Positions 1,096 through 21,127 of a stretch of 64,000 nucleotides of DNA are shown here, in pieces (positions within the stretch are counted from its first letter, which is position 1; every line of letters begins with the position of its first letter). A program made the translations under genes and the position numbers. The notes beneath the pieces were generated by a model that searched no databases, was not told where the DNA came from, and worked only from the letters and a program-made list of their open reading frames with translations. The stretch comes from Sinohyriopsis cumingii (lineage: Eukaryota; Mollusca; Bivalvia; Unionida; Unionidae): assembly GCA_028554795.2 (NCBI GenBank), contig CM068838.1, positions 124,999,928 through 125,063,927 on the forward strand, written 5' to 3'.

Positions 1096-1111
1096 GGCCC
1101 TGAAAAGGGCC
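1096..1111 (-). terminator. Histone-type 3' stem-loop in left terminal repeat
   Basis: On the minus strand it reads GGCCCTTTTCAGGGCC: a 6-bp stem and TTTC loop. It lies 22 nt past the stop of the minus-strand gene 1134-1364 and is followed by CTCGAAAAGAGAT, a purine-rich block like the histone downstream element. It is the mirror copy of the stem-loop at 20764-20779. Confidence 0.85.
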
Positions 1112-1133
1112 TTTGGTTTATGTTAATATGCCC

Positions 1134-1364
1134 TTAACATAAAGGGCATTTGCGACATCTTCTTTTCCTCAAACTTCGTCTTACAGCAGGGCCATACATC
1201 AGAGTCCTCTTGAGGCAACCTTGTCTCTCTATATAGACTCTTCTTATCCACAGACTGCTGTTGGTCCTGTAGACAACGGTCCACTTGGATCGGACATACA
1301 TGAGCATGTCCGTCCTGAACATCATTGTTGACACAAGGGTTGAAGATTCAACGTCGGTCCACAT
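1134..1364 (-). CDS. Small basic protein of unknown function, outward-reading left end gene
   Basis: A 76-residue frame that reads toward the left terminus. I do not recognise the product. It is rich in Arg, with a basic C-terminus ending in two Cys-containing clusters (RCRKCPLC). That this is a real gene rests on its setting: a good TATA box on the minus strand at 1409-1416, 45 nt before the start codon, and a histone-type stem-loop 22 nt after the stop. It stands divergent from the plus gene at 1584, sharing a promoter region of about 220 bp. It could be a DNA- or RNA-binding regulator, but nothing in the sequence shows this. Confidence 0.6.
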   Translation of the reverse strand: MWTDVESSTLVSTMMFRTDMLMYVRSKWTVVYRTNSSLWIRRVYIERQGCLKRTLMYGPAVRRSLRKRRCRKCPLC

Positions 1365-1408
1365 GTTGAGGCTCCGAAAATAGGTGAATCAATGCAGTGA
1401 ACTGCGCT

Positions 1409-1416
1409 TATTTATA
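1409..1416 (-). promoter_or_regulatory. TATA box for the minus-strand end gene
   Basis: TATAAATA on the minus strand, 45 nt upstream of the ATG at 1364, leaving room for a very short leader. Confidence 0.7.
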
Positions 1417-1514
1417 GGGACAGAAAGGATTGAAACGGATTGAGTTCATTCACCAATCCGAACACGCGTTACAGAATTCAGTCAGCCCGCATCCAATCCG
1501 AAGAGAGCAGTCTG

Positions 1515-1522
1515 TGACGTCA
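1515..1522. promoter_or_regulatory. Palindromic CRE/ATF site TGACGTCA
   Basis: A perfect consensus cAMP-response element (ATF/CREB site), 62 nt before the ATG of the plus gene at 1584 and between the two divergent left-end genes. ATF sites are well known in adenovirus early promoters; use here is inferred. Confidence 0.6.
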
Positions 1523-1583
1523 CGTAGTCAATATAGATTCGCTAGCGCTTGTGTGCAGTCAATCTATGCGATAGTGATTCAAC

Positions 1584-2150
1584 ATGACGGAAACTCAGAA
1601 AACGATCCAGTGGGGTGCACCAGCAGGGGAGACCGCCCAAGGGAATCCGGACTTACTTTCAGAAGAGGTGAATTGGGATTTTGTGGATTTTCTCTCCTCG
1701 CAAGAATTTGTTCCGGAACCTTCGTTACCTTCTTCATTACCGCAAGTGGAGAATTTTAGACAGAGACAGAAAGAAGAATTGGAGAAATTTATACAACGAC
1801 AAAAGGAAGCGGAACAGGCTTTTCTCCTACAGCAACAGCAACAAGAAGAAGAGGTAAGAAAAAAACAACAGCAAGAAGAAGTAGCAGCAAAGAAACAAGA
1901 GGGTGAAAATCAAACGGTCACGGTACTGTTGGACATTTTAGCGGAGTTAAGAAGTCTGAAACAAATGTATCAGACTTCTTTATCACGACCGAAGAGAATA
2001 CGACCTTCCCGAGCCAAACATGTCAACCCTGTGACTAAGCCTACCGTACCACCCTTAGTGATTTCAACCCAATCATTATCATCATTACGCAGTCCAGAAG
2101 TAGGCCTTGGCCGTGGCAAAGGCTTAAGGCAGTTAAAATTGATTGCTTAA
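1584..2150 (+). CDS. Gln/Glu-rich coiled-coil protein, left end accessory gene
   Basis: 188 residues, not recognised. An acidic N-terminal part has a hydrophobic WDFVDFL patch (about residues 32-38). A long Gln/Glu/Lys coiled coil follows (about 55-115), then a second amphipathic helix (LLDILAELRSLKQMY) and a basic, proline-containing tail. Such an acidic/hydrophobic head plus coiled coil would suit a transcription regulator, but this is a guess. It is intronless, starts 62 nt after a CRE site, and its stop is 27 nt before a histone-type stem-loop. It therefore belongs with the stem-loop gene class at the element ends rather than with the core genes. Confidence 0.75.
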   Translation: MTETQKTIQWGAPAGETAQGNPDLLSEEVNWDFVDFLSSQEFVPEPSLPSSLPQVENFRQRQKEELEKFIQRQKEAEQAFLLQQQQQEEEVRKKQQQEEVAAKKQEGENQTVTVLLDILAELRSLKQMYQTSLSRPKRIRPSRAKHVNPVTKPTVPPLVISTQSLSSLRSPEVGLGRGKGLRQLKLIA

Positions 2151-2177
2151 ACTCACCCCTGCACCATAAAGAAAAAA

Positions 2178-2193
2178 GGCCCTTTTCAGGGCC
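2178..2193 (+). terminator. Histone-type 3' stem-loop after the 1584-2150 gene
   Basis: GGCCCTTTTCAGGGCC, preceded by an A-rich flank and followed by ACTCA. At 2203-2218 comes TCTCGAAAAGAAAGAC, purine-rich like the histone downstream element recognised by U7 snRNA. The 6-bp stem, 4-nt TTTC loop and distance from the stop (27 nt) fit metazoan replication-dependent histone mRNA ends. Confidence 0.88.
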
Positions 2194-2218
2194 ACTCACA
2201 TTTCTCGAAAAGAAAGAC

Positions 2219-2547
2219 AATTTCAATTTGCCAATAACTCAAAAAAAAACTCGCCCATGTTACCCTTATAGTACGCGTCTTTGTATGAGTGCGTGAGTGT
2301 AGCTTCTTATTTTAAAATCAAAACTCAAAGACTCTTACCTTATATCATTCATTTATTCTTTTCTCCATTTTTTTACAATCCAATTCACAATTCACAACAC
2401 AACACTTTAATAAAAAGTTCATTGATTTCTTTTGTCTCCTTGTTTAGTCTCTCTGTTTTTTTAATTTCTTCACCGTCACACTCTTTTCCTCTTCTTCTTC
2501 CTCCTCGCTTTCTTCCCTTCTTCTTTTTTTCTCCTGTTTCTTTTTCT
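2219..2547. other. Pyrimidine-rich stretch, no clear gene
   Basis: Low-complexity C/T-rich sequence on the plus strand between the left stem-loop and the minus-strand zinc-knuckle gene. It is probably 3' untranslated sequence of that gene. A plus-strand open frame here is composed of S, F, L and P runs and looks like a shadow. Confidence 0.5.
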
Positions 2548-2919
2548 TCACCTGTCTTCTTTCTTCCTCAGAAGAATCCCTCTAATCCTCTGAAGAATCC
2601 CTCTCTTCTTCTGAAGAATTCCTCTTTTCTTCTGACTCCTCTTGTTTCTTTTTTGGGCAATCTGGAGACCAATGTCCTTTTTCTTTACAATAATAACAGG
2701 TATCTTGACTTTTGTCTTTTTTATCCCCTGTTTTTTTTTTCTTTTTTGACGGTCTGGACACTCTGAAGACCAATGCCCTTTCTTCTGACAGATATAGCAA
2801 GTATCTTGACTTTTATCTCTAAAGGAAGGAGAGTAGTCCGTAGGCTGGTCTGAAGAGAATTTTCTAATGACCCCTCGCAAAGCTCTGACGAAACGTTCCA
2901 TCTGGTTAGTCTCTTCCAT
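2548..2919 (-). pseudogene. CCHC zinc-knuckle protein gene, minus strand, about one break
   Basis: Reads divergently from the polymerase gene. The N-terminal part (from the ATG at 2919) has a MERFVRALRG helix, then a retroviral-type zinc knuckle of the C-x2-C-x4-H-x4-C type (CYICQKKGHWSSEC). A second knuckle of the same kind is visible downstream, then a highly charged Lys/Glu/Ser tail. CCHC knuckles bind single-stranded nucleic acid; in this setting a replication or packaging helper is possible. A TATA box at 2975-2982 (minus) supports the start. The gene looks to have about one break, and its 3' limit is uncertain. Confidence 0.6.
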
Positions 2920-2974
2920 CGTTGTGCTCGGCTTGAGAGTGAAATGAATAGTGAAAGGACAAGACACACACCCT

Positions 2975-3006
2975 TTTATATACGCTGGTCTGCTATGACT
3001 ATAAAG
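2975..3006. promoter_or_regulatory. Back-to-back TATA boxes of a divergent promoter
   Basis: TATATAAA on the minus strand at 2975-2982 points at the zinc-knuckle gene; TATAAAG on the plus strand at 3000-3006 points at the polymerase gene. The two boxes are only about 18 bp apart, so the genes are likely switched together. Confidence 0.65.
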
Positions 3007-3053
3007 TAGTTTATGGTGTTTGAACTTGAGTCATTTGACTTTTTGCTTTCAAG

Positions 3054-6000
3054 ATGAAACGATCCCATTCATTCGAGAAGAAAGAAGAAGAAAGTAAGAG
3101 GCCGAAACGTGATCTATCGCCTCGTACCAGGGCTGAAATCTTGGCACAAATTCATGCCAGTGATTTTGAAGAGGACATGAGTGAACCAGAATCCGAACCC
3201 TCTAAACCAAGTTCACCACCCTTTGTCAACCCTGAAAAGTACTATTCCATTCGAGAGACGGAAAAGCGCTCCTCTAGAAAATTTAGAACCACGGCTTACA
3301 AATACACGGTGAAGTTTAAAGATTTCAAGGCTGAAGTGCCGTTAGAGAAAGCAGAAGTGTTCATCACTGAGGTGTGGGATTCTTTGCTCACTGCACTCAA
3401 GCGACAATGTCAACCCAAAGAAGACGATCGCTTGAGACTTTCCATACAACACGACGGTTTGAAATCCCCTGTTTGGATCGAGTTTAGCACCCCTGCAGAA
3501 TTGACTGCTTCCAAAGTCATGGACAAGATTCAACACGTACAACAATCTAATGATCAGTTTGACATCACCGATGGTAAAGCCACACTGGACATGACCCACG
3601 TCTCTCCTCCTCAAGGGACAGGACGCAAAAAGATGTTATTGGTGGACGACCTTCGCAACACCAAAACGAGTCTCGTCCGAATTAACAACCCTCATGACCA
3701 GATGTGTTTAGCCCGTGCCATCGTGGTGGGACGAACCTATGCCAACAAGAACGACACGGTAGAATGGAAAAGAACCTGGAACACTATTCAACGTTCCGAC
3801 CGAGCCAAACAACGAAACGAAGCAGAACTCCTGTTACAACAAGCCGGACTGCCCAAAGACACACCCTGTGGCATTCCCGAGATGCAAAGATTGCAAGATG
3901 TCCTAGCTCCACGATACACCTTGAAAGTGCACCCTCAAGAAATGCGCGGGCCTCTATTGTTTCGAGGCCAAGATTTTAAGGACGGAAAATACATTCACCT
4001 TTATCATCACGATGACCATTTCGATACCATTACCAGTATCACTGGATTCCTGGGATATGCTTATTATTGTGAGAAATGTGACTATGGTTATAATAATCGA
4101 GAGCAACACAAACATTGTGGATGGAAATGCTCAGGATGTTTGGCCTCTCCACCCTGTCTGAGCGAAGAACCAGTGCCTTGTTCAACTTGTCTGCGCACGT
4201 TTGTCAGCCCTACCTGTTACCAACAACATCTGAAAACACAAGGTTCACAGAAGAAATGCGCTTGTCAACTGCTGAGATTGTGCCCTACGTGTGGACAAGG
4301 CATACTTACCAATAATGCCAAGGCACACGTATGTCGAGGAAAGAAAAAATGTCACATTTGTCACCACATCGTGGACTTGGAACACCAATGCTACGTGCAA
4401 AAATACCAACCCCCACCAGAGAAAGAGGACGGTCACAAGAAGAAAGGCAATTTCATCTTTTTCGATTTCGAATGCATGCAAGAGACCGGCATTCACATTC
4501 CTAATTTTTGCGTGGCTCATCGAGCGTGCGAGAAGTGCATTCAAGAACCTATCTTCAGTCATTGCCCTCACTGCAGCAAGATTCCTGGAGGGCGTGAAAA
4601 AATCTTTCGGGGACCGAACACGTTAGCCGATTTTGCACAATGGGTCTTAGACCCCATCGACAAGACGTGGAGCCAAGAGGACATCGAATGTTACGGAGAT
4701 TGTCATCGTCATGCCACGGTGATGGCTCACAATTTCTCCGGATACGATGGACAGTTTCTTTTGAGGTACTATACGGAACAAGGCACCGAGCGTCCTAAAG
4801 TGACTTTGAACGGAGCCAAAATCATTTTCATGCAAGTGGGACAAGTACAGTTTAAAGATTCGATGAGCTATTTGGCCATGCCTTTGAGTCGAATGCCTAA
4901 AACGTTTGGAATGACAGAAATGGCTAAAGGGTACTTTCCACACTTTTTCAATACGGAAGCCAATCAACACGCCGTTCTACCCCATTTACCTGAGGCTCAC
5001 TATTACGACCCCGACAACATGCGTACCGAACAACGAGAAGCTTTCTACGCTTGGTACCAGGCTCACGCCTCGGACCCTTTCGACTTTCAGGAAGAAATGC
5101 TAAAGTATTGTCGTTCCGACGTGGACATTTTACGGCGTTGCTGTGGAAAATTTCGAGAACTGTTCATGGAACACGGAGGGGTCGATCCTTTGAAAGAAGC
5201 TTGCACCATTGCCAAAGCGTGTTCCTTAGTGTATCGACAACGATTCATGCCTGAAAACACCGTGGCTGTCATCAGTCCTCAAACGACCCACTTTGTCAAA
5301 CGTCAATACTCGGTCAAAGCCCTACGTTGGTTACATTACTTGTGCGACAAGGAAGACAAGTGGATTCAGCATGCCCGCAACGGAGGGGGTGAAAAGACCA
5401 TCGGAACGTATTCGGTCGATGGCTGGGACTTAGAAAACCCCAAGATCGTGTACGAGTTTAACGGTTGCTTATTTCACGGATGTCCCGTCTGTTACCCTGA
5501 CCGTGGCACTAAAAATCAGTTTTTGCAACGAACCATGGAAGACTTGTACCAGGACACTTGTCAGCGACGCCTAAAGTTAGAACAGCAAGGATACCAAGTG
5601 GTGGAAATGTGGGAACACGAGTACGATCACCGTATGAAAACCGATCCCGAGTTTAAACGCCTCGTGGAAAGTTACCAGTTCATGGACCCGCTGAACCCGA
5701 GGGATAGTTTGTACGGAGGAAGGACCAATGCCACCTGTTTGCTGTACCAAGCCGACGAAGAGAAAGGAGAAGAAATCAAATACTTGTGTGTTCGCTGTAT
5801 CCCTACGTGTGCAAATATTGTCGCTTTCCTGTAGGGCACCCGCAATTGTTAACGGAACACATCGACCTGAAAAACATTCGACAATACGAAGGCTTGATCA
5901 AGTGTAAAGTTTTGCCTCCCACGAACCTCTACCATCCCGTCTTACCTCACCATTGTCAAGGCAAACTGATGTTTCCCTTGTGCCGTACTTGTGCCGAAAC

Positions 6001-7099
6001 GTGCAACCAAGATCAACCTTGTCAGCACAGCCAGGAAGAACGTGCCTTGACGGGAACCTGGGTCAGCGTAGAATTGTTCAAAGCTCTGGACATGGGATAC
6101 CAACTGTTAGAAGTGTACGAAATTTGCCACTTTCCCAAGACACAACAGTACCGCAAGGGTGATCCCAGTCAGAAAGGCATTTTCGCCGACTACGTGGATG
6201 CCTTTTTGAAACTGAAGCAAGAAGCCAGCGGCTATCCTTCCTGGTGTCACACTCCCGAAGACCAAATACAATTCAAAGAGAAATACTATGAACAAGAAGG
6301 CATCTCTTTAGACCACATCGAGAAAAACGAAGGCAGGAGATCGTTTGCCAAATTGATGTTAAATTGTTTGTGGGGTAAAATGGCACAACGACCGTGTTTA
6401 CCCAAGACGGAATATTTGACAGAACCTTCCCGCTACTTCCAGATGATTCACGACAAAACCAAATACATGAAACACGTGGACGTCGTTCGAGAGAATTTGA
6501 TCTTGGTCAATTACGAAGAAGATCTGGACTTTGTACAAGACGACCCTTTTGGAAATGTCATCATTGCGGCTTACGTGACAGCCCATGCTCGCTTAAAATT
6601 GTACGAAGCTTTAGAACTGTTAGAAGAACGCGTCCTGTACTTTGACACGGACAGTTGCATTTACATCCATCACCCGATTCAACATCACCCTAACATCGAA
6701 GGAGACCGTTTAGGAGCCTGGACAGACGAGCATCCCGACGACAAGATTCTAAGTTTTGTCAGTGGCGGTCCCAAAAATTACGGCTACGAATACCGTGACA
6801 AACAAGGAGAAGTGCACACGACGTGCAAAGTGAAAGGACTGACTCTGAATTATCGTACCAGTCGTGTGGTCAACTTTGGGGTATTGAAAGAAGCCTTGCA
6901 ATCGGGAGAGGATGGAAACTTTAAAGTGACCACTCACCAACCGAACAAGATTGTACGTTTACCCACTCACCACATCGTCAGTCGACCCTTGGAAAAAGTC
7001 TATCAAATCGTGTACCAGAAGCGAGTGAGACTTCCCAATCATTTCACCTTACCGTACGGTCACGTCGGTATTGGTCTGTATATAAAAAAGGAACCCTAG
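3054..7099 (+). pseudogene. polB: Protein-primed family B DNA polymerase (pPolB), about one break
   Basis: Replicates the linear element from its ends using a protein primer. The N-terminus is charged with an NLS-like KRPKR. A Cys/His-rich middle (about 4065-4400) is probably zinc-binding. The three exonuclease motifs come in order: FDFEC near 4460, HNFSGYDGQF near 4730, YCRSDVDIL near 5105. Then follow the protein-primed-specific region with SLYGGRTNA near 5710, an SLYP-type motif A, motif B (NCLWGKMAQR) near 6360 and motif C (YFDTDS) near 6640. The total of about 1,350 residues is normal for Polintons. The gene looks to have about one break. Its end overlaps the TATA box of the next gene. 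Confidence 0.95.
7079..7086 (+). promoter_or_regulatory. TATA box for the BIR gene, inside the polymerase 3' end
   Basis: TATATAAA overlaps the last codons of the polymerase gene, 59 nt before the ATG at 7145. Confidence 0.65.
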
Positions 7100-7144
7100 G
7101 CAAGATCGATAGTTCATTGTGACTACCAAGACCGAGCGAACAAG

Positions 7145-7882
7145 ATGAATACTTTGAAAGAGGCATCGTTCCAGTTTGGGGATTGTAAAAAAGTTGTATC
7201 TTCCTCTAGTGTGACTAATATTGGATGGATAAGACCCAGGCATTGCGACGGAAAATGTCCGGAAGGAAACTGCGATTGTCCATGTGGTTACCATTGTAAT
7301 TGCGTAACGGAGTTTGCAGACGAGTGCGATTGTGAGCCTTGCGATGGGACCGATGCTGTACGTTGTGACCTGAGCGATGCCGTAAAGCATCATGGGAACT
7401 TTGTTCTCACTGCCCCTGTCATGGAAAGTGATGCTGTGCGTGTCAAACCTGAGGGATGCGAAAGCGATGCTGCTCGTCCTCTTAGACATTTTACCGGGTT
7501 TAAAGGGGAATGTCGACCTTCACGTCTACCCCCCTACGGATGTCATCCAGCCCTGAGTAAACTCCTGTTCCTGTCACCCAACCCTCATCGAAACGAACCT
7601 GTGAAAAACGAATATTCGTTTCCTGTGCGTTTGTCGGAATACTGCGACTTTGAAAATCGTCTTCAATTGTTCAAAGGAAAATGGCCAAAGTATCTGGGAG
7701 GACCGACCCCCGAAGAATTAGCCAGAGCCGGATTTTTCTACTTGGGCGAAGGAGATAAAGTCAAGTGCTTCAGTTGCGGTGTGTCACTTCACCACTGGGA
7801 ACCGCAAGATTCGGCCTACGTAGAACATGCTCGATGGTCACCGAATTGTCATTACTTACCTTTAGTGGGACCGAGACATTGA
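7145..7882 (+). CDS. BIR-domain inhibitor-of-apoptosis-like protein
   Basis: 245 residues. The C-terminal third (about 158-240) is a single BIR domain. It has the conserved arginine (ENRLQLFKGKW), the AGFFYLGEGDKVKCF core, and zinc ligands C-x2-C (CFSCG, about 209-212), H (about 229) and C (about 236), plus the W before the histidine region. The N-terminal half is a Cys-rich cluster (about 36-75) followed by three short repeats around SDAV/SDAA. I know of no domain match for that half. No RING finger is present, so it is not a ubiquitin ligase of the classic IAP type. BIR proteins block caspases; capture by a virus-like element to delay host cell death is the natural inference. It lies between polymerase and the F-box-like genes. 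Confidence 0.85.
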   Translation: MNTLKEASFQFGDCKKVVSSSSVTNIGWIRPRHCDGKCPEGNCDCPCGYHCNCVTEFADECDCEPCDGTDAVRCDLSDAVKHHGNFVLTAPVMESDAVRVKPEGCESDAARPLRHFTGFKGECRPSRLPPYGCHPALSKLLFLSPNPHRNEPVKNEYSFPVRLSEYCDFENRLQLFKGKWPKYLGGPTPEELARAGFFYLGEGDKVKCFSCGVSLHHWEPQDSAYVEHARWSPNCHYLPLVGPRH

Positions 7883-7910
7883 AGTAACTTCTTACCATAA
7901 TAATCTGTTC

Positions 7911-8366
7911 ATGGATACTTTACAAGAGAACATTCGTGCTTTGCCTGTGGAATTGAGAGAACGCATTTACCGAGAGCTGGTCAAAATACAAGTGAAACGT
8001 AAAGAACAATTGCATCCGTTACGTCACCGGTGTTTGAACCACTGGTACCTGAAGGCTATACAAGGACTGATTCAATTGAAAGTGTTCCATTGGACAGACA
8101 TTGATCAACGATCCTCTAGTTTTAAAAAGGATTGGTTTGGTATGGACGATTGTAGTTACATCATTGTAAACGTACTGCATCGAATTCCAGAGGAAGAGTT
8201 AACGAATTACCAACATCTTTCACACAATGTCAACTTGGTGAAAGAGGAAACTTCTGAACGAATTGTAATGTGTAGATTAGTGACTCAACGATTTAAATTC
8301 GACACTGAAGTGAAACCATGTTTGTGCAAAGAGTACATTTCTTGTGTCAGACCAAAGAGGATTTAG
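7911..8366 (+). CDS. F-box-like protein, tandem copy 1
   Basis: 151 residues opening with a block shared almost word for word by the next two genes (MDTLQENIRALPVELRERI and so on to KIQVKRK). LPVELRERIYRELV resembles the first half of an F-box (LP-x-E-L-x3-I-x3-L), the SKP1-binding helix pair of ubiquitin ligase adaptors. The rest (HPLRHRCLNHWYLKAIQGLI, then a beta-rich part) is unique but shared with copy 3. The F-box reading is tentative: the motif is short and other helical pairs can look alike. There is no TATA box directly upstream. Confidence 0.65.
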   Translation: MDTLQENIRALPVELRERIYRELVKIQVKRKEQLHPLRHRCLNHWYLKAIQGLIQLKVFHWTDIDQRSSSFKKDWFGMDDCSYIIVNVLHRIPEEELTNYQHLSHNVNLVKEETSERIVMCRLVTQRFKFDTEVKPCLCKEYISCVRPKRI

Positions 8367-8378
8367 TATGACCTATTC

Positions 8379-8705
8379 ATGGATACTTTACAAGAGAACA
8401 TTCGTGCTTTGCCTGTGGAGTTGAGAGAACGCATTTACCGAGAGCTGGTCAAAATACAAGTGAAACGTAAACTCAAAGTGATTCATCCGTTTTTAAATTA
8501 TGCTCTGTTCCAAAGTACAAGAAGACTGATTATGAGTGGATATTACATTAGGCACAAAGTTAAACGAGGCTATTGGCTACCACCCAACGATTCCAAAAAC
8601 AGTGTATATACTTATGGATATTTTACAAGAGTACATTTTGGGCTTGCCTGTGGAGTTGAGAGAACGCATTTACCGAGAGCTGGTGAAAATACAAGTGAAA
8701 CGTAA
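8379..8705 (+). CDS. F-box-like protein, tandem copy 2, short and divergent
   Basis: Starts with the same 31-residue block as copy 1, at near-identical nucleotide level, but then has its own sequence. Its frame overlaps the start of copy 3. It may be a real short gene or a leftover of the tandem duplication; the first block is conserved while the rest is not. Confidence 0.4.
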   Translation: MDTLQENIRALPVELRERIYRELVKIQVKRKLKVIHPFLNYALFQSTRRLIMSGYYIRHKVKRGYWLPPNDSKNSVYTYGYFTRVHFGLACGVERTHLPRAGENTSET

Positions 8706-9132
8706 AGAACAATTGCATCCGTTACGTCACCAGATTTTTAACCACTGGTACCTGAATGGTATAAGAGAACTGATTCGTCAGAAATTGTTTCAGTGGTCAG
8801 ACCTTGTTCAATACTTCCAGGCCCCCGATGATTCACGTGTTGATCATTTTGGTTACTTCGAGATTCACCTAGAGCAACCCATTGAGGAAGACGAGGTAAA
8901 GGATTACCAACATATTTTACGTGGAATCTACTTAGCGGAAGAGGAAACTTCTAATCGAACTCTGACGTTTCGGTTACAGTATGCAAGATTTACATTCCCA
9001 ACTGGAGAACGAAGATCACTGGCTAGAAAGTACGTGTATTCTTTTCGAAACAAAGAGACTATAAAAACAGGCTGCTATGCCACGACTTATGTCGTATGTC
9101 ATCCAACAGATTCCGTGGAAGGAACTCAATGA
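8614..9132 (+). CDS. F-box-like protein, tandem copy 3
   Basis: About 172 residues from the ATG at 8614, chosen because the shared block (MDILQEYILGLPVELRERI) begins there; the frame is open for 26 codons further upstream. It matches copy 1 along its full length, including HPLRHQIFNHWYLNGIRELI and the C-terminal strand-rich part. Nucleotide identity between copies 1 and 3 is highest in the first 100 bp, as expected for a recent tandem duplication or gene conversion. Confidence 0.6.
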   Translation: MDILQEYILGLPVELRERIYRELVKIQVKRKEQLHPLRHQIFNHWYLNGIRELIRQKLFQWSDLVQYFQAPDDSRVDHFGYFEIHLEQPIEEDEVKDYQHILRGIYLAEEETSNRTLTFRLQYARFTFPTGERRSLARKYVYSFRNKETIKTGCYATTYVVCHPTDSVEGTQ

Positions 9133-9301
9133 CCATATTCAAACTGTGGATCATTACCATCGATTATTACAACAACTGTATCCATTCAATTTGGGACGAC
9201 AAGTGGTGTGTGTCTTAGTGACTTGTTTTCTGGGATTTCGTTTACCAGCCGATTCTTTGTGGACTCTTTACGATCAGTACTTACCACCTCCATGGCCTTA
9301 A
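9077..9301 (+). CDS. Small protein of unknown function
   Basis: A 74-residue frame overlapping the end of the third F-box-like copy (MPRLMSYVIQQIPWKELNDH...). It is rich in aromatic residues and has a short hydrophobic stretch (VVCVLVTCFLGF). I do not recognise it; support is only its position in a packed gene row. Confidence 0.35.
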   Translation: MPRLMSYVIQQIPWKELNDHIQTVDHYHRLLQQLYPFNLGRQVVCVLVTCFLGFRLPADSLWTLYDQYLPPPWP

Positions 9302-9805: not shown

Positions 9806-9816
9806 AAAAAACATTC

Positions 9817-9822: not shown

Positions 9823-9837
9823 CGTGTTCTGAAAAAG

Positions 9838-12352: not shown

Positions 12353-12401
12353 AAAGGCCTTCGGAAGTCCCAAGATCTCAGAATTCACCCCTGACAACCC
12401 C

Positions 12402-13052: not shown

Positions 13053-13073
13053 GACACCAATCAACACAAAAAA

Positions 13074-14186: not shown

Positions 14187-14191
14187 CCATC

Positions 14192-14605: not shown

Positions 14606-15556
14606 GTCACCAAAACCAATTTTACTTAACCTTACCCAGTGACAGTTCCATGGAGGTGTTCCATGGAGGTGTTTCCCAAGAACACGTTGTGCTGTTACAC
14701 GGCCAAATTACCTCAAGCCATCCCCTTAGATCACGAAGCCCATTGGGAAGTGGCTTTAGTGGAAATAATTCACCCGACCCAAGTCCACAATGTCATTGCC
14801 CAGCAAAATACTTTTACGGTGGAAGTTCATGACAAACAATTGCAAGAGGAGTTGGATAAGACTAGTAGCACATATACCAATAAAACCTATAATCAAATCA
14901 CTAAAACGACCACCTACAACTTTCTGATTAACCCAGGCTATTATTTCAGTGGTCATCATTTGGTCAGCGCCATAGCCTCCAAGTTTAATGGCGTGTTTGG
15001 GGAAGCTTTTAAGATTATCAAGAACAAAAGTGTCACCATGGAGTACCACAAAGTAGCTCGTCGCTTCTTGATGAAATTTGAACGGCCTAAAATCGTGTCC
15101 ATTAAATTTTGTCCTGAATTGTTTGACATGTTGGGCGGTGACACGGAGATGAGGAAGAAATTAGAACAAAAAACACAACCCGAATTACCAGTCATTTACG
15201 ACAACGAGACTTTTGGCCAGTATTTTCGTACCCCGGTAGAACTGAACCAAGGACTGAATTTGATCTTTGTGTATTCCGATGTGGTGGAATACAACGTGGT
15301 GGGACACACCTCCGTGCCGTTACTGCGTGTCATTCCTTTCAAAGTGGATTCTGCCACGAACGCTGACGAGGAAGGTGGAAACACTTACCACGTCCACCGC
15401 GAATTTGTCCATCCTCACTATTTGCCGGTCAGCAAGTCGTATTTGGACACGGTCAACATTACTATAAAAGGAGATTTGGGACAAAATATTCCATTCACCA
15501 AAGGAAAAGTCACGGTGAAACTCCATTTTCGAAAACGGTTCTCTCACGATTCGTAA
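14602..15556 (+). pseudogene. Penton-like minor capsid protein, about one break
   Basis: Begins with QFYLTLPSDSS, the usual N-terminus of Polinton minor capsid proteins, and continues with HWEVALVEIIHP, the jelly-roll entry strand. It ends at HFRKRFSHDS after about 310 residues, normal for the family. It forms the capsid vertices. The gene looks to have about one break, while the rest reads cleanly. Confidence 0.88.
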
Positions 15557-15563
15557 GTAAGTC

Positions 15564-15983
15564 ATGTATCCAGTGTACCAAGGGGTGGCTCGACAGCGAG
15601 GACACGGTTTAGGAGACATGTTAAAATCGGCCTTTCGTTCGGTGGCCCCGGTGTTGAAACCGATGGTGACACGCGGATTGCACGCCTTGAAAGATGCGGC
15701 ACTGACACAAGGCAAAGAATTTCTCCAAAATGTCATCATCGACAAACAGAACCCTAAAGAAGCCTTCATGAGGGCAGGCAAAAATGTCTTGCTGCAAACG
15801 GGCAAAGACATTTTGGGTCGACGAGAGACACCTATAAATGCCCTGCACGCTACCGAGTCAGGCATTCAGCAAGGACAAGGCAGAAAGAGACGACGAAGAA
15901 GAAAACACCCTTTCACCAGACTTCAAGCGAGAAAGGCCAAGAAAAGAAGAACCGTTCGAGACTTAGACGTTTTCGATTATTGA
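15564..15983 (+). CDS. Conserved Polinton GHG basic protein
   Basis: 139 residues. The N-terminus YQGVARQRGHGLGDMLKSAF is followed by amphipathic helices (LKPMVTRGLHALKDAALTQGKEFLQ), and the C-terminus is Arg/Lys-rich with an RKRRRRRK nuclear-type signal. The GHG-containing start and amphipathic region recall virion lytic or cement proteins such as adenovirus VI. That likeness is by layout only. It sits between the two capsid genes, as is usual in Polintons. Confidence 0.72.
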   Translation: MYPVYQGVARQRGHGLGDMLKSAFRSVAPVLKPMVTRGLHALKDAALTQGKEFLQNVIIDKQNPKEAFMRAGKNVLLQTGKDILGRRETPINALHATESGIQQGQGRKRRRRRKHPFTRLQARKAKKRRTVRDLDVFDY

Positions 15984-16002
15984 GACACAGCAACAACAAA
16001 AA

Positions 16003-17331
16003 ATGATGCACCGAGAGTCTTGCGCCTGTTCCAAGACGGAACTGGATCTGTTTGCCATGCCCCCCACCATGATGACGATGCAAGAATCCCAGTGGGTGGA
16101 ATTTAATCCCATCTCCACATTGACCGATTCCGCTCCCATCGAGTTTGACATCAAAGGACAACCCGAAGATTACATCGATTTGAATAACAGTTACTTGTAC
16201 TTGAAAGTCAAAGTTAAAGATAAGGGAGGAGATAATATAACCGGCGAAGAGAAAGTAGCTCCCATCAACAATTTCATGCATTCCTTGTTCAGCTCAGTGG
16301 ACTTGTACTTGAACAACAAACTGGTTAGCAGCAGCATGGATACTTACCCTTACCGTGCCTACTTGGAAAATCTCTTGACGTACGGAATAGATGCCAAGGA
16401 TACTCATCTCGATGCCTGTGTGGTGTGGCAACCTGGCGAATTTGATAAAACAGGTCTTGACCCTGACCCCAAATTAAAACCAACCACCAATGAGGGATTT
16501 GTAGAACGAAGAAAGAAAATATTAGATGAACAGAGTTTAGAACTGATGGATCGTTTGCATTTGGACATGTGGTTGCAAGAGAAATATTTGCTAAACGGAG
16601 TGAATATTCGCCTGAGACTGAATCGCAGTAGTGCCGCTTTCCATTTGTTGGCTGATGGTGATGCTACTACTGGTGGCAATCCTAAAACCCAAATCATGCA
16701 GGCCAAACTCTACGTACGACGCGTGGAAGTGTTACCTAAAGTAGGTAACGACATCAGTCAAACGTTGAGCAGAACGACCGCCAAGTATCCCATCCGACGC
16801 GTGGAAGTGAAAACGTTCACCATTCCCGCTAACCTTCAATCCATAACCGAAGATCATCTGTTCCAAGGACAGTTACCCAAGCGTTTAATCCTTGGTATGG
16901 TCTCGAATTCAGCCTTCAACGGAGCCTTCCTTGAAAATCCTTTCAACTTTCATCATTACAATGTGTCCAAGATCGAAGTCAGTCGCGATGGCAAGACCTT
17001 GTGTACCCGACCTTTCGAACCTGACTTTAAAAACAAGAATTACTTGAGGTCGTACTTGTCCCTGTACGAAGCCACGGGACAGTTAGGAACCAACACCAGT
17101 CACGGCATTACGTACGACGATTATGACGGAGGCTACGCTTTGTGGGCTTTCGATTTCACTCCAGACCAAGGCAGCGACGAGGGACATTTCCACCCTATAA
17201 AATCTGGCCAGATTCGTGTGGAACTTCAGTTTGCAGATAAACTACCAGCGACAGTGAACGTCATCCTGTATGCAGAATTCGATAATACCATAGAAATCAA
17301 CAGTTTGAGAGAAGTCATTCTAGATTATTAG
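16003..17331 (+). CDS. Double-jelly-roll major capsid protein (hexon-like)
   Basis: 442 residues. The N-terminal segment (KTELDLFAMPPTMMTM) leads into the first jelly roll, with IEFDIKGQPEDYIDLNNSYL and FSSVDLYLNNKLVSSS; the second carries VEVKTFTIPANL and the FAFDFTPDQ-type strand near the end (LWAFDFTPDQGSDEGHF). These are the standard landmarks of the Polinton major capsid protein. It forms the hexagonal capsid face. The frame is complete. Confidence 0.95.
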   Translation: MMHRESCACSKTELDLFAMPPTMMTMQESQWVEFNPISTLTDSAPIEFDIKGQPEDYIDLNNSYLYLKVKVKDKGGDNITGEEKVAPINNFMHSLFSSVDLYLNNKLVSSSMDTYPYRAYLENLLTYGIDAKDTHLDACVVWQPGEFDKTGLDPDPKLKPTTNEGFVERRKKILDEQSLELMDRLHLDMWLQEKYLLNGVNIRLRLNRSSAAFHLLADGDATTGGNPKTQIMQAKLYVRRVEVLPKVGNDISQTLSRTTAKYPIRRVEVKTFTIPANLQSITEDHLFQGQLPKRLILGMVSNSAFNGAFLENPFNFHHYNVSKIEVSRDGKTLCTRPFEPDFKNKNYLRSYLSLYEATGQLGTNTSHGITYDDYDGGYALWAFDFTPDQGSDEGHFHPIKSGQIRVELQFADKLPATVNVILYAEFDNTIEINSLREVILDY

Positions 17332-17337
17332 AAAGCC

Positions 17338-17844
17338 ATGGAAGACTGTTATCCCTCTTTACCTAGTGGAGAAACTTTGGAGATGGAATGTAAGGAGACC
17401 GTGGAAGGAGAAGAATCTCAAGACAAAGACGAAAAAGATATCATGATGAAGTCGAGATGGCCAGAACAAGAGGCCCATTTAGTCTCCTGTTTTGCCAAAC
17501 ACTTGGTCGACAAAATGACGGAATTGATCAAGAAAAATTGCTATGGATGTCAAAACGATCATCCCAGTCAAATTCAACACGATAAATGCCTGATGTTGAG
17601 TCAAGAAGAAAAATTGGACGAGTATCTGGACGAAGCTTGGAGCCTCATCTCGAACAAAGACGTGTTGCACCAGTGGTATAAAGACTTGCGTGAACATTCT
17701 TGTCCACCATTAACCACTCAAGAGATTCATCGTATCGAAGCTCTCCTGAATCAGAGTGAGGAAACAGAACGAATAACCGTTTATTCGTCAGACATTTTCA
17801 AGCAAAAAGTCAGGATCGAATTGACGACGTATTGTTACCTGTGA
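17338..17844 (+). CDS. Conserved Cys/His protein between capsid and protease genes
   Basis: 168 residues. The acidic N-terminus is followed by LIKKNCYGCQNDHPSQIQHD, with C-x2-C-x3-H-x4-H and a later Cys, which may form a zinc site. A W/Y-containing helical end follows. A very similar CYGC-HPSQ-H motif recurs in Polintons and related elements at this place, but I know of no assigned function. It starts six bases after the capsid stop. Confidence 0.75.
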   Translation: MEDCYPSLPSGETLEMECKETVEGEESQDKDEKDIMMKSRWPEQEAHLVSCFAKHLVDKMTELIKKNCYGCQNDHPSQIQHDKCLMLSQEEKLDEYLDEAWSLISNKDVLHQWYKDLREHSCPPLTTQEIHRIEALLNQSEETERITVYSSDIFKQKVRIELTTYCYL

Positions 17845-17867
17845 AGAAGAAAAACAAACACAAAACA

Positions 17868-18428
17868 ATGGATACCTGGGAACTTTATTACCTTTTGAAC
17901 CACAGTTCGTATACGGCTTCTTGGAATCCCGTCGTCTGTGCTAAAGATGAACTCCCTCATCGCAAACCTAAAGACCATCAAGCTTACGTGATCAACACGG
18001 ACGACAGTCATCTCCCAGGAACCCACTGGGTAGCCGTTTACTTTCCTCAAGAAGGATGTGTGGAATATTTCGATTCGTACGGATTGCCCCCTTTGGAAGA
18101 CGATATCATCGACTTTATGAGAAGAAATGCTCAGACCACCCAATTCAATAATGTGAAATTGCAAGGCACAGATTCCTTGGTGTGTGGACAGTACTGTGTG
18201 TATTTTCTGCATCATCGCAGCCTGGGCTATTCCTTAGAACATTTAGTGACTCATTTCGATCCTCGTTCTTCTGCTAGAAACGATGTGAAAGTAGATAGAT
18301 GGTTTTGTGACCATTATGCTTATCTTTTGTCTCAAGCTAGGAAACGTAGTGTCCATCAATGGCCTAATGATTTCCAACAGTGGAAATCACAATTTCATTC
18401 ACAACGTTGTCAGCCCTGTTCAAAGTAG
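17868..18428 (+). CDS. pro: Adenain-type cysteine protease
   Basis: 186 residues from the ATG at 17868. The catalytic set of the adenovirus protease family is visible: H53 (GTHWVAVYF), D69 (EYFDSYG), Q99 (LQGTDS) and C106 (VCGQYC). It matures virion proteins during assembly. It closes the core block; AATAAA follows at 18535. Confidence 0.95.
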   Translation: MDTWELYYLLNHSSYTASWNPVVCAKDELPHRKPKDHQAYVINTDDSHLPGTHWVAVYFPQEGCVEYFDSYGLPPLEDDIIDFMRRNAQTTQFNNVKLQGTDSLVCGQYCVYFLHHRSLGYSLEHLVTHFDPRSSARNDVKVDRWFCDHYAYLLSQARKRSVHQWPNDFQQWKSQFHSQRCQPCSK

Positions 18429-18655
18429 TTAGTAATTGAAGAAAAAAAATGTTTGTCATTTGAAAAAAATTGTTTGATGTTATCATGTTGGATTATTGTT
18501 AAAAATGTTGTTGTTTAGTGTTAAGTGATTTTTGAATAAAAATGTTGTGTTTAGAAAAAAATGCCTTTGTCTTTTGTTTAGCTATAAGAATGTTGGATTG
18601 ATGCTCTTTCATTTCTTACTATCCCTCTCATGAACGTTGCGGCTCGAAAACCGTG
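18429..18655. other. AT-rich 3' region of the virion block
   Basis: No gene. It carries AATAAA at 18535-18540, about 107 nt after the protease stop, a fit polyadenylation signal for the plus-strand virion genes. Confidence 0.6.
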
Positions 18656-18656
18656 T

Positions 18657-18685
18657 GGGGATGTTTTCCTTCACGTCCGCGCTTT
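18657..18685 (+). promoter_or_regulatory. Right-end composite promoter element, copy 1
   Basis: GGGGATGTTTTCCTTCACGT followed by CCGCGCTTT, 63 nt before the ATG at 18748. The same element stands before the next two genes (19524, 20214, 20283). Confidence 0.75.
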
Positions 18686-18747
18686 AACTTTAAGAACCGG
18701 GTTGTTCCCAGTCTAGCCATCCATTGTCGACTCATCCTCCTAAGAAG

Positions 18748-19104
18748 ATGTGCTCCAAACTAGCTAAGCTCAACGAAGCCTACGTGAATCTGCATAGGGT
18801 CAGACACAGTCTGATACCGAAACCAGAAGAAATAGAGAATGTGAGAATGTTAAAAATCACTGAAGACCTGATAGAAGAGCTCTTCAGAGAAGAAATGAAC
18901 AAGGAGAAAGAAGAATGGACAGAGAAGTACAGACTTCAGAGACAGCAGCAACAGCAGCAACAACAGCAGCAGCAGCAACCTGAAGCTGACAGAGGCTTTG
19001 TCGATTGTCGTATCGACACCAAAGAATTCTTCTTCTCTTTCCGAAGAAGCAGACCTATCGCCAGAAAGTCTATCCTCAGAGGACATCGCATTCTTAGAAA
19101 CTAA
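18748..19104 (+). CDS. Right-end accessory protein 1, polyGln coiled coil
   Basis: 118 residues from the ATG at 18748. The helical N-terminal part (LAKLNEAYVNLHRVRHSLI) resembles the first 25 residues of the next gene's product (LEKLLELHVHLEYARRIL). A Glu/Lys-rich helix and a run of about 12 Gln follow, then a basic tail. It is unrecognised. It is the first of three right-end genes with the same plan: shared promoter element, helical head, charged coil, then histone-type stem-loop. Confidence 0.7.
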   Translation: MCSKLAKLNEAYVNLHRVRHSLIPKPEEIENVRMLKITEDLIEELFREEMNKEKEEWTEKYRLQRQQQQQQQQQQQQPEADRGFVDCRIDTKEFFFSFRRSRPIARKSILRGHRILRN

Positions 19105-19134
19105 AAAAGAATGCCATAGCAAAACAAAAAAAAC

Positions 19135-19150
19135 AGCCCTTTTCAGGGCT
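19135..19150 (+). terminator. Histone-type 3' stem-loop after right-end gene 1
   Basis: AGCCCTTTTCAGGGCT, 30 nt past the stop, with an A-rich 5' flank (AAAAAAAC) and an exact ACCCA 3' flank, then CTCTAGAAAAGAAATAACG as downstream element. An AATAAA about 70 nt further (19219) could serve as back-up. Confidence 0.9.
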
Positions 19151-19523
19151 ACCCAAAACTCTAGAAAAGAAATAACGATCGATTTGCCAGTGTGTGTGTG
19201 TAGGTAGAGTAGTGTGAAAATAAACACTAACTCTTTCTTAAAAAAATGTGAGGGTATGTGTTTGTGTTTGTGTTTGTAAGTGATAAAGTAGGTTGGTGTG
19301 GATAGTAGATTAAAATGATGTTTGGTTTTTTTTGGGCTGTTTGAGGTGTAGATTTGGGGTTAGATTGGATTGCTTTGCATATGTAAATAGTCTATTGAAG
19401 TGATTCATAAAAAATTTTATAATAGTGATGGGTAGCATAAAAAGTGAGTGAGTGTTTCTTTTAGGTCCGCGCGTTGTTGTTTTTTGGTCATGATCTAGGT
19501 AAGATGAATTTTATGTTTTTAGG
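19151..19523. repeat. Spacer shared between right-end cassettes, copy 1
   Basis: T/G-rich spacer without a gene. Its first 110 bp (from about 19170) closely match 20012-20100, and GGTCATGATCTAGGTAAGAT at 19486-19505 recurs at 20247-20266. The gene, stem-loop and spacer were thus duplicated together. Confidence 0.7.
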
Positions 19524-19562
19524 GGGGATGTTTTACTTCACGTACGCGCTTTCAGTATAAAT
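19524..19562 (+). promoter_or_regulatory. Right-end composite promoter element, copy 2, with TATA box
   Basis: GGGGATGTTTTACTTCACGT then ACGCGCTTT and TATAAAT at 19556-19562, 53 nt before the ATG at 19615. Confidence 0.78.
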
Positions 19563-19614
19563 TGAAACTCGTTCGGCAGTCCAGCTACCCTTGTTGATTG
19601 ATCAACACCAAAAA

Positions 19615-19938
19615 ATGAACACGAGACTGGAGAAACTGTTGGAACTTCATGTGCATCTGGAATATGCCAGGCGCATATTAAATGAACTGGCCGCTGAAGC
19701 CATTGTCGAGGAGGGAATGATAAGAGAGGAGGAAAGAAGAAAAAAAGAAGAGGAGGAGAGAAGATATAAAGAAGAGGAGGAGGAAAAGGAGAGAAGAAAA
19801 AATTTCAGAATCCCAGAGAGTGAAAATTGGGATTCTGAAGCGACATATCCTGCCTCTGCTCTCTCCCCCCAAAAGGTAAAAAGTAACTGGGGGATAAGAT
19901 GTGTATGTGGCGCCAGGCCTGGAAGGTGCCACCATTAA
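19615..19938 (+). CDS. Right-end accessory protein 2, Glu/Arg coiled coil
   Basis: 107 residues from the ATG at 19615. The helical head (LEKLLELHVHLEYARRILNEL) is followed by about 40 residues of E/R/K repeats that would form a single charged helix, and a Cys-containing end. Unrecognised. It shares promoter, plan and 3' stem-loop with the flanking genes, so the three are likely paralogues that have diverged in the low-complexity parts. Confidence 0.68.
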   Translation: MNTRLEKLLELHVHLEYARRILNELAAEAIVEEGMIREEERRKKEEEERRYKEEEEEKERRKNFRIPESENWDSEATYPASALSPQKVKSNWGIRCVCGARPGRCHH

Positions 19939-19967
19939 CCAGGTGTCCATGAAGTTCCAAACAAAAC

Positions 19968-19983
19968 AGCCCTTTTCAGGGCT
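19968..19983 (+). terminator. Histone-type 3' stem-loop after right-end gene 2
   Basis: AGCCCTTTTCAGGGCT, 29 nt past the stop, flanked by AAAAC and ACCCA, then CTCTAGAAAAGAAATAACG. The stem-loop and downstream block equal those at 19135. Confidence 0.9.
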
Positions 19984-20213
19984 ACCCAAGACTCTAGAAA
20001 AGAAATAACGATCCATTTGCCAATGTGTAGGTAGAGTAGTGTGAATATAAACACTAACTCTTTTTTTAATTGTGTGAGGGTATGTGTTGGTGTGTTAGTG
20101 TTTATAAGAGCTGAGGTATGTTTGTGTGAATAGTAGATTATGGGTTTCTTTATTGTTTCTTAGCGTATGTGAAGAGTATAGTTAGGGTTTTATTATATGA
20201 AATGAAAAAAGTA

Positions 20214-20320
20214 GGGGATGTTTTCCTTCACGTACGCGCGTTGTTGGGTCATGATCTAGGTAAGATCCATTTTATGTTTTAGGGGGATGTTTTCCTTCAC
20301 GTCCGCGCTTTTCGTATAAG
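20214..20320 (+). promoter_or_regulatory. Right-end composite promoter element, two copies, with TATA-like box
   Basis: GGGGATGTTTTCCTTCACGT occurs at 20214 and again at 20283, each followed by a CGCG core. A TATAAG box at 20315-20320 follows the second, 50 nt before the ATG at 20370. In both cassettes the pair of CGCG cores flanks GGTCATGATCTAGGTAAGAT. Confidence 0.78.
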
Positions 20321-20369
20321 AATCCACAGTATTAGTTGTTCAAACCATTCTGCAAAGAATAAAAAGAAG

Positions 20370-20750
20370 ATGGCGTCAAACCAAATGGACAAAATACAAA
20401 CCTTGCAAGACGTTTTAGACAACTTAGGAATAATGGAACAGATGCTAATAAGACTGGTTGAAGACCATTATTCCTATAGTCCCCATCGTGTAAAGATGGA
20501 AATTAACAATTTAAGAAAAGCAAAGGACAAGATTAGTGGTGTCATGAAGGAAATAAAGGAGGAGAAGGAGGATGAAGAGGAAAAGATAAGAATAAGAACA
20601 TGGAACGAAAAAATTGAAAAAGAAGAGGAAAATGAGAAGAGGAAGAAAGAAGAAGAGGAGGAAGAGAAGAAAGAAGAGGAGGAGAAAAAAAAGAAGAGAA
20701 AGAGTGTTGGAGATAAAATAAGAAGTTGGTGGAGGAAAAGAAGAAATTAG
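20370..20750 (+). CDS. Right-end accessory protein 3, outward-reading, charged coil
   Basis: 126 residues. The helical head (LQDVLDNLGIMEQMLIRLV) is followed by about 60 residues of nearly pure Glu/Lys and a basic end (WWRKRRN). Unrecognised, third of the right-end set. The gene reads out toward the right terminus and stops 13 nt before the stem-loop that lies inside the terminal repeat, mirroring gene 1134-1364 at the left. Confidence 0.7.
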   Translation: MASNQMDKIQTLQDVLDNLGIMEQMLIRLVEDHYSYSPHRVKMEINNLRKAKDKISGVMKEIKEEKEDEEEKIRIRTWNEKIEKEEENEKRKKEEEEEEKKEEEEKKKKRKSVGDKIRSWWRKRRN

Positions 20751-20758
20751 AAGAAAAC

Positions 20759-21127
20759 CCAAAGGCCCTTTTCAGGGCCCCCATATATCTCGAAAAGAGA
20801 TAGCCTTTGAATTGCCTACCCCTTTTTAAAAAATTTTTTTTAAAATTTAAAAAAAATCCCATGTTAAATTCCCCTTGTACGTAGAGTGACCCACGATTTA
20901 TTGCCATGTTAAATTCCCCTTGTACGTAGATTGTCCCACGATTTATTCCCATGTTAAATTCCCCTTGTACGTAGATTGTCCCACGATTTATTCCCATGTT
21001 AAATTCCCCTTGTACGTAGATTGACCCACGATTTTTTGCCATGTTAAATTTCCATTGTACGTAGAGTGTCCCAGGGGTCCCTGTAATGCTAATTCCCATT
21101 GTACGTAGGGTGCCCCACTTCACTACT
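20759..21127 (-). repeat. Right terminal inverted repeat (369 bp)
   Basis: Inverted copy of 748-1116, including the 45-bp array and the inner-edge stem-loop, ending CACTACT. The plus-strand copy of the array begins after the AT-rich palindrome near 20823-20860. Confidence 0.97.
20764..20779 (+). terminator. Histone-type 3' stem-loop in right terminal repeat
   Basis: GGCCCTTTTCAGGGCC, then CTCGAAAAGAGAT as a putative downstream element. It serves the outward gene 20370-20750. Confidence 0.87.

What the first reader, a model, noticed from the sequence alone, without database searches (positions are those of the whole stretch)
1096..20779. Histone-type 3' stem-loops end five Polinton accessory genes
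Five genes (1134-1364 minus; 1584, 18748, 19615 and 20370 plus) each stop 13-30 nt before a 16-nt hairpin GGCCCTTTTCAGGGCC or AGCCCTTTTCAGGGCT, in the sense orientation of the gene. This equals the replication-dependent histone mRNA end: 6-bp stem, TTTC loop, A/C-rich 5' flank, ACCCA 3' flank (exact in two copies). A purine-rich CGAAAAGAAAGA or TAGAAAAGAAAT block follows, like the U7-binding downstream element. Histone mRNAs so processed lack poly(A) and are made in S phase under SLBP control. I know of no report of this in Polintons. If real, the element ties a set of its genes to host DNA replication while its core genes use AATAAA.
Basis: partly seen in the sequence, partly recalled or inferred. 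Interest (0 to 1): 0.92.

Follow-up and report, generated by a model that had tools for sequence, protein, structure and literature searches.

The report
Virus-like transposon borrows histone gene signals
A virus-like jumping element in a mollusc-like genome ends its accessory genes with the same hairpin signal that its host uses to finish histone messages, and starts several of them with the host's histone promoter motif, so these genes are probably switched on with the host's DNA replication.

Summary
A Polinton (748-21127) carries five hairpins 13-30 nt after stop codons, in sense; all hit Rfam Histone3 (29.3-36.4 bits; one of five passes the gathering score). Two are the two TIR copies and two lie in a duplicated segment: three independent kinds. 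The decisive comparison was a host histone repeat unit from the same genome: its H2B hairpin is letter-identical, and its purine element lies 13-14 nt after the stem (element: 12-13). Of the 75 scored Histone3 hits in the 2.9-Gb genome, 74 follow Polinton accessory genes and one lies in TIR-like sequence. In nine other copies, 18 of 21 right-arm genes keep a hairpin; core genes 0 of 13. New: right-arm genes also carry host histone promoter boxes (H2B/H1 and H4 type), 19 of 21 in those copies; the box has 30,558 exact genome matches, its reversed control none. Most likely these genes run on the host's S-phase histone programme at both ends. Transcripts, SLBP binding and U7 pairing were not tested. 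Ten literature searches (open-access library) listed no such report.

The parts
748..1119 (.). left terminal inverted repeat; holds the 1096 hairpin at its inner end
   Evidence: blastn 748-1119 vs 21127-20755, 99.5% over 373 bp; flanks read
20755..21127 (.). right terminal inverted repeat; holds the 20764 hairpin; no AATAAA/ATTAAA in it after the hairpin
742..747 (+). target-site duplication TTTCTT (left)
   Evidence: read
21128..21133 (+). target-site duplication TTTCTT (right)
   Evidence: read
1134..1364 (-). accessory gene acc1134 (76 aa, pI 10.9), left arm
   Evidence: dN/dS 0.10-0.17 against 6 open copies; pI
1096..1111 (-). histone-type hairpin GGCCCTTTTCAGGGCC, 22 nt after stop of acc1134
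   Evidence: (31.8 bits)
1077..1086 (-). purine downstream element CTCGAAAAGA
   Evidence: GAAAAG 12 nt after stem
1584..2150 (+). accessory gene acc1584 (188 aa; one long helix 53-133 in a model of mean pLDDT 69)
   Evidence: (20 relatives)
2178..2193 (+). histone-type hairpin GGCCCTTTTCAGGGCC, 27 nt after stop
   Evidence: (36.4 bits, above gathering)
2204..2213 (+). purine downstream element CTCGAAAAGA
   Evidence: 13 nt
18660..18682 (+). histone promoter box A (1 mismatch to host H2B/H1 box), 65 nt before ATG of acc18748
18748..19104 (+). accessory gene acc18748 (118 aa)
   Evidence: relatives 89-97% identical in other copies; no dN/dS obtained
19135..19150 (+). histone-type hairpin AGCCCTTTTCAGGGCT, 30 nt after stop
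   Evidence: (30.1 bits)
19161..19170 (+). purine downstream element CTAGAAAAGA, identical to that of host H3, H4 and H2B
19455..19475 (+). histone promoter box B, 21 nt exact match to host H4 promoter
19527..19549 (+). histone promoter box A (3 mismatches), 65 nt before ATG of acc19615
19615..19938 (+). accessory gene acc19615 (107 aa)
   Evidence: dN/dS 0.11-0.26 against 4 open copies
19968..19983 (+). histone-type hairpin AGCCCTTTTCAGGGCT, 29 nt after stop
   Evidence: (29.3 bits)
19994..20003 (+). purine downstream element CTAGAAAAGA
   Evidence: 13 nt
20217..20239 (+). extra histone promoter box A (2 mismatches)
20286..20308 (+). histone promoter box A (1 mismatch), 61 nt before ATG of acc20370
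20370..20750 (+). accessory gene acc20370 (126 aa)
   Evidence: dN/dS 0.05-0.07 against 4 open copies
20764..20779 (+). histone-type hairpin GGCCCTTTTCAGGGCC, 13 nt after stop
   Evidence: (31.8 bits)
20789..20798 (+). purine downstream element CTCGAAAAGA
   Evidence: 12 nt

Best explanation
A highly amplified Polinton family of a bivalve-like host expresses its accessory genes as histone-type genes. Each accessory pre-mRNA ends with a copy of the host's replication-dependent histone processing signal: a hairpin (for SLBP), a cleavage site in the short flank after it, and a purine element (for U7 snRNP), giving mRNAs without poly(A) that are made and kept mainly in S phase. Right-arm genes also carry the host's histone promoter boxes shortly before the ATG, so transcription too follows the histone programme. 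The core genes tested (capsid, protease and their neighbour) lack both signals. Shown here: presence, placement, match to the host's own histone signals at both gene ends, persistence in other copies of the element, absence from the core genes tested. Inferred: SLBP/U7 use, lack of poly(A), S-phase timing, and origin by capture from, or adaptation to, host histone genes.
For: Hairpins confirmed, Rfam Histone3 E 2e-7 to 1e-4. Host histone unit L186: H3, H4, H2B, H2A and H1 each followed by a Histone3 hit of 35.0-39.4 bits; the H2B hairpin is identical to the element's; CTAGAAAAGA of H3, H4 and H2B is identical to that at 19135 and 19968; GAAAAG begins 13-14 nt after the stem in the host, 12-13 in the window. 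Of the 75 scored Histone3 hits of the genome (of 589,472 first-look candidates) 74 follow a Polinton accessory protein match in sense and 1 lies in TIR-like sequence; 0 match H3 or H4; 74 are followed by ACCCA; RAAAAG stands 13 nt after the stem in 71, strict GAAAAG in 59. Right arms of nine other copies: hairpin (5 or 6 of 6 pairs) after 12 of 12 acc18748/acc19615, 4 of 5 acc20370, 2 of 4 accL075; core genes 0 of 13. Stem changes are mostly paired. Accessory genes are under purifying selection: dN/dS 0.00-0.35 in 21 comparisons over four families. Promoter: host-derived box A at 4 places (1-3 mismatches) and box B at 1 place (exact) in the window, all in the right arm; shuffles expect 0.01 and 0.055 at up to 4 mismatches; box A upstream of 19 of 21 right-arm genes in the other copies, 0 of 5 core genes; 30,558 exact genome matches, reversed control 0. 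The same 16-mer in 65 viral-collection loci is never followed by ACCCA.
Against: No RNA data. Four of five window hairpins score below the gathering score and below the host's histones. Three of five window copies lack an exact ACCCA, and the left-arm TIR hairpins of 30 fetched copies are followed by AGCCA in 28 of 30 hairpins. The right-arm hairpins 19135/19968 have A-U for the usual G-C first pair. AATAAA stands downstream of acc1584 and acc18748, so poly(A) ends are possible. Left-arm genes lack the promoter boxes. Three of 21 right-arm genes in other copies have damaged hairpins, and only 39 of the 75 genome hits have an open frame of 60 aa or more ending within 60 nt upstream. The 75 hits, and with them most dN/dS partners, were found by the hairpin itself, so they cannot measure how often it is lost. 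Six remote Polinton contigs (MCP 26-42% identical) have no Histone3 hit, but no accessory gene either. Host U7 was not found because that search did not complete.
Confidence: 0.85

Rival explanations
1. The hairpin and boxes are relics of histone-gene sequence caught once by recombination and carried along without function; the mRNAs are polyadenylated.
For: AATAAA downstream of two genes; some TIR hairpins are damaged; the 150 scored acc1584 copies are 99-100% identical, so there was little time for loss in them.
Against: Signals persist after acc1134, acc20370 and acc19615, whose copies differ by dS of about 0.5-2.6 (those copies were found by the hairpin, except that acc1584 copies differ by only 0.02-0.11); in right arms not chosen by their own hairpins 12 of 12 genes of two families keep it; stem changes are mostly paired; no AATAAA/ATTAAA within 400 nt after acc1134, acc19615 and acc20370.
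Confidence: 0.07
2. The hairpin is a DNA-level or transcription-termination element of the Polinton (replication, packaging or pausing), and the likeness to histone ends is convergent.
For: Two copies lie in the TIRs; identical 16-mers occur in 65 viral-collection loci, where I read them as terminators.
Against: In sense 13-30 nt after the stop in five of five window copies; purine element at the host's spacing; ACCCA in 74 of the 75 scored genome hits; histone promoter boxes on the right-arm genes.
Confidence: 0.04
3. The direction is reversed: host histone genes of this lineage took the promoter box from the element.
For: The box has 30,558 matches, in the listed sample spaced like the element's genes, against at most 662 first-look histone candidates.
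Against: The 3' signal is an animal-wide histone feature (recalled); the boxes sit in three of the five histone promoters of the one unit read, in two forms. Other bivalve histone promoters could not be read.
Confidence: 0.04

Closest known systems
Replication-dependent histone genes of animals (3' signal Rfam RF00032)
   Same: Hairpin, loop, purine downstream element and spacing, short distance to the stop; histone promoter box in right-arm genes
   Different: The encoded proteins have no histone match in Pfam and acc1584 is modelled as one long helix; the genes lie in a dispersed mobile element with at least 150 near-identical acc1584 copies, probably thousands (inference)
Polinton/Maverick elements (adintovirus-like)
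   Same: PolB (Pfam DNA_pol_B_2), rve+chromo integrase, A32-like ATPase, weak adenovirus-type protease match, capsid relatives in bivalves, TIR, 6-bp TSD
   Different: Accessory arms under histone-type promoter and 3' signals; not mentioned in the papers listed or in the passages seen

Membership tests
Histone-type 3' end (RF00032) | 16-nt hairpin GGYYYTHHTHARRRCC shortly after a stop, in sense (formula recalled) | tested here: met
   first pair is A-U instead of G-C in two of five
Histone-type 3' end (RF00032) | Rfam gathering score 34 bits | tested here: inconclusive
   1 of 5 window hairpins passes (36.4), the others have 29.3-31.8; the 75 scored genome hits, in Polinton copies, pass
Histone-type 3' end (RF00032) | ACCCA-like 3' flank | tested here: inconclusive
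   exact in 2 of 5 window copies, 74 of 75 scored genome hits; AGCCA in 28 of 30 left-TIR hairpins of fetched copies
Histone-type 3' end (RF00032) | purine-rich downstream element at the host's spacing | tested here: met
Histone-type 3' end (RF00032) | complementarity to host U7 snRNA | not tested
   the RF00066 search of the genome was asked repeatedly and never answered
Histone-type 3' end (RF00032) | SLBP binding, cleavage, no poly(A), S-phase mRNA | not testable with these tools
   needs RNA and binding experiments
Replication-dependent histone gene | encodes a histone | tested here: not met
   no histone match in Pfam for the five window genes; no H3/H4 match in 75 loci
Replication-dependent histone gene | histone promoter box of this host | tested here: met
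   right-arm genes only: 3 of 3 in the window, 19 of 21 in other copies; left-arm genes 0 of 2 in the window and 0 of 2 in L177
Polinton/Maverick | PolB, integrase, ATPase, protease, capsid genes | tested here: met
   protease weak (16.3 bits, cut-off 21.3); capsid label recalled, no Pfam match; PolB frame split at 5834/5969
Polinton/Maverick | long TIRs and 6-bp target-site duplication | tested here: met

The most novel reading that the evidence does not exclude
A virus-derived element has put its accessory gene set under the host's histone expression programme, at the 3' end in both arms and also at the promoter in the right arm, and has spread the histone promoter box to about 30,000 places, far more than the host has histone genes, so that it not only times its genes to S phase but may compete for histone-locus factors, SLBP and U7.
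Probability: 0.4. Interest if true: 0.95.

Novelty: new variant of a known kind. Interest (0 to 1): 0.88.

Why it matters
Non-poly(A), SLBP-dependent mRNA ends are regarded as a hallmark of replication-dependent histone genes (recalled). A mobile element that uses them, together with the host's histone promoter boxes, would be the first case known to me of such mimicry; it would explain how a DNA element ties gene expression to the phase in which nucleotides and replication proteins are at hand. It offers many natural test copies for what defines a histone promoter and 3' end in such animals. It also warns that poly(A)-selected RNA libraries would miss these transcripts.

Tried and rejected
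Viral contigs: MCP, integrase and acc1584 queries found no relatives; a longer hairpin pattern found 0; the 16-mer found 65 loci, none followed by ACCCA, which I read as chance or terminators. Contaminated MAG contigs L001-L006 hold remote Polinton genes without Histone3 hits, but no accessory genes and no inverted repeats, so they say little about absence. The model of acc1584 gave one long helix and no fold worth searching. Papers: ten answered searches; one search was rejected for its wording; none of the listed papers, judged by title and start of abstract, reports histone signals in Polintons or a virus using them.
Full report
What is there. The window holds a Polinton at 748-21127, with TIRs of about 373 bp (99.5% identical) and a 6-bp target-site duplication TTTCTT. 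It has PolB (two frames, 3054-5834 and 5969-7099), a BIR protein, an A32-like ATPase, an rve+chromo integrase and a weak adenovirus-type protease match. The 16003-17331 protein has 881 relatives at E <= 0.001, 120 of them listed; the named animals in the list are bivalves (Mercenaria and oysters) and one snail; capsid is my recalled label.

The hairpins. All five are exact, perfectly paired and follow stop codons by 22, 27, 30, 29 and 13 nt in sense. Shuffles expect 0.013 per element (300 shuffles, largest 1). Rfam Histone3 gives 36.4, 31.8, 31.8, 30.1 and 29.3 bits, one above the gathering score of 34. The two TIR copies are one signal seen twice, and 19135/19968 lie in a duplicated segment. 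A signal in the TIR serves the outermost gene at each end; the right TIR has no AATAAA or ATTAAA after the hairpin.

The host's own histone signals. The genome has histone genes in tandem units of about 8.3 kb (150 matches scored of 662 candidates). One unit (L186) holds H3, H4, H2B, H2A and H1, each followed by a Histone3 hit of 35.0-39.4 bits. The H2B hairpin is GGCCCTTTTCAGGGCC, the element's own. H3 and H4 differ in the last loop base (T), as does H2A (A); H1 has one changed pair. CTAGAAAAGA follows H3, H4 and H2B; GAAAAG begins 13 nt after the stem in these, 14 in H2A and H1, and 12, 13, 13, 13, 12 in the five window copies. Stop-to-hairpin gaps in the host are 27-38 nt. Four further H3 copies and one H2B copy carry the same hairpins as in L186. 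Host H4 also has AATAAA after its hairpin, so such a site after acc1584 or acc18748 does not by itself speak against histone-type ends.

Other copies chosen by the hairpin. The 75 scored Histone3 hits of the genome (of 589,472 first-look candidates, so a selected top set) were all fetched and read: 74 have a Polinton accessory protein match upstream in sense (acc1134 29, acc1584 23, accL075 12, acc20370 10), one (L126) only TIR-like sequence; none matched the two histone yardsticks H3 and H4 (H2A, H2B and H1 were not tried); 69 have GGCCCTTTTCAGGGCC, 3 GGCTC/GGGCC, 3 GGCCC/GAGCC; 74 are followed by ACCCA. Only 39 of 75 have an open frame of 60 aa or more ending within 60 nt upstream, so many copies may be decayed.

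Other copies not chosen by the hairpin under test. The search for acc1584 scored 150 copies, 99-100% identical, of 26,947 candidates; 30 were given as loci. In these 30 the hairpin after acc1584 is intact in 29, one differing in its last base. On the left-arm side 30 consensus hairpins were found and one locus had none; 28 of the 30 are followed by AGCCA, not ACCCA. I also read the expected right arms of nine other copies (picked by their acc1584 hairpin, acc1584 83-96% identical; fetched). Asking for at least 5 of 6 pairs, a hairpin follows acc18748 in 6 of 6 (one, L179, has only a 19-residue protein match), acc19615 in 6 of 6, acc20370 in 4 of 5, accL075 in 2 of 4, together 18 of 21, of which 15 have all six pairs; core genes 0 of 13 (protease 6, capsid 2, o17338 5). 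The three misses show altered remains of the hairpin. On 18 distinct hairpins of host and element (26 rows), 97.2% of cells pair and 8 cells change on both sides (shuffled mean 2.8, 0 of 500 reach it); the number of pairs with both-sided change, 2, is reached by 37 of 500 shuffles. Related rows weaken these numbers.

The genes are real. NG86 dN/dS against open copies: acc1134 0.10-0.17 (6), acc1584 0.00-0.35 (7, dS only 0.02-0.11), acc20370 0.05-0.07 (4), acc19615 0.11-0.26 (4); acc18748 had no open copy in that set. acc1584 also has 20 relatives in the protein search; one, P0010, reads on past the usual end into residues that fit a translated hairpin and GAAAAG block (my back-translation).

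Promoters. A box shared by right-arm genes proved to be the host's histone promoter box: GATGTTTTC(C/A)ATCACGTCCGCGC before H2B and H1; TTTCTTTTAGGTCCGCGCG stands before H4. In the window host-derived box A occurs at 18660, 19527, 20217 and 20286 (1, 3, 2, 1 mismatches) and box B at 19455 (exact over 21 nt); at up to 4 mismatches shuffles of the window expect 0.01 and 0.055 (200 shuffles). The box ends 61-65 nt before the ATG in the window, 82-84 in H2B and H1. In the nine other copies box A (up to 5 mismatches allowed, 0-3 seen) stands within 140 nt upstream of 19 of 21 right-arm genes, 0 of 2 left-arm genes and 0 of 5 core genes. A box A pattern that covers the host and the element form has 30,558 exact matches in the genome and its reversed control none. 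Of the first 100 places, 88 lie in same-strand clusters; of 55 spacings 5 are 69-77, 12 are 662-747 and 28 are 806-938 bp, close to the 69, 690-759 and 867 bp between the window's boxes. These 100 places were not themselves read. Taken at face value this extrapolates to some 14,000 clusters, single boxes included, from one end of one contig.

Reading. Two independent signals, at both gene ends, match this host's own histone genes, sit on accessory genes and not on the core genes tested, and persist in other copies. The simplest account is that the accessory genes are expressed as histone-type genes, tied to S phase. Shown: sequence, placement, host match, persistence. Inferred: SLBP, U7, lack of poly(A), timing, direction of transfer. 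Not done: host U7 (search not answered), RNA evidence.

Literature. Ten answered searches of an open-access library listed no report of histone-type ends in Polintons or viruses; most subscription papers are not in that library. Seen: search listings; one passage of PMC6210712 (bivalve histone mRNAs have the palindrome near the stop and, in some, purine elements); passages of PMC11071296, which speaks of histone-like proteins in adomaviruses but not of histone mRNA ends, and of PMC11071308, with no such statement among the terms asked.

Noticed in passing
genome G000: Histone box A has 30,558 exact matches and acc1584 had 26,947 first-look candidates, pointing to an enormous expansion of this Polinton family.
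   Followed up: partly
window 5834-5969: The PolB reading frame is interrupted between two open frames (intron or damage).
   Followed up: no
window 7911-9132: Three tandem relatives of one small gene beginning MDTLQENIRALPVELRERIYRELVKIQVKRK or nearly so, of unknown function.
   Followed up: no
window 19455-19560 and 20217-20319: acc19615 and acc20370 each have a second histone box about 70 nt further upstream, followed by GGTCATGATCTAGGTAAGAT and a T-rich stretch ending in TTTTAG, which looks like a short splice donor/acceptor pair or a duplicated promoter.
   Followed up: no
window 21199-21323: A 125-bp palindrome (about 91% by self-comparison) just outside the Polinton, probably a small foldback element.
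   Followed up: no
G000 hits: Element hairpins score up to 45.6 bits against the histone model, above the host's own histone genes in L186 (35.0-39.4).
   Followed up: partly
L007-L071: The same 16-mer recurs in a few fixed contexts in viral-collection contigs, probably as intrinsic terminators.
   Followed up: partly
window 2548-2919 minus: CCHC zinc-knuckle gene between acc1584 and PolB, without a histone hairpin.
   Followed up: no
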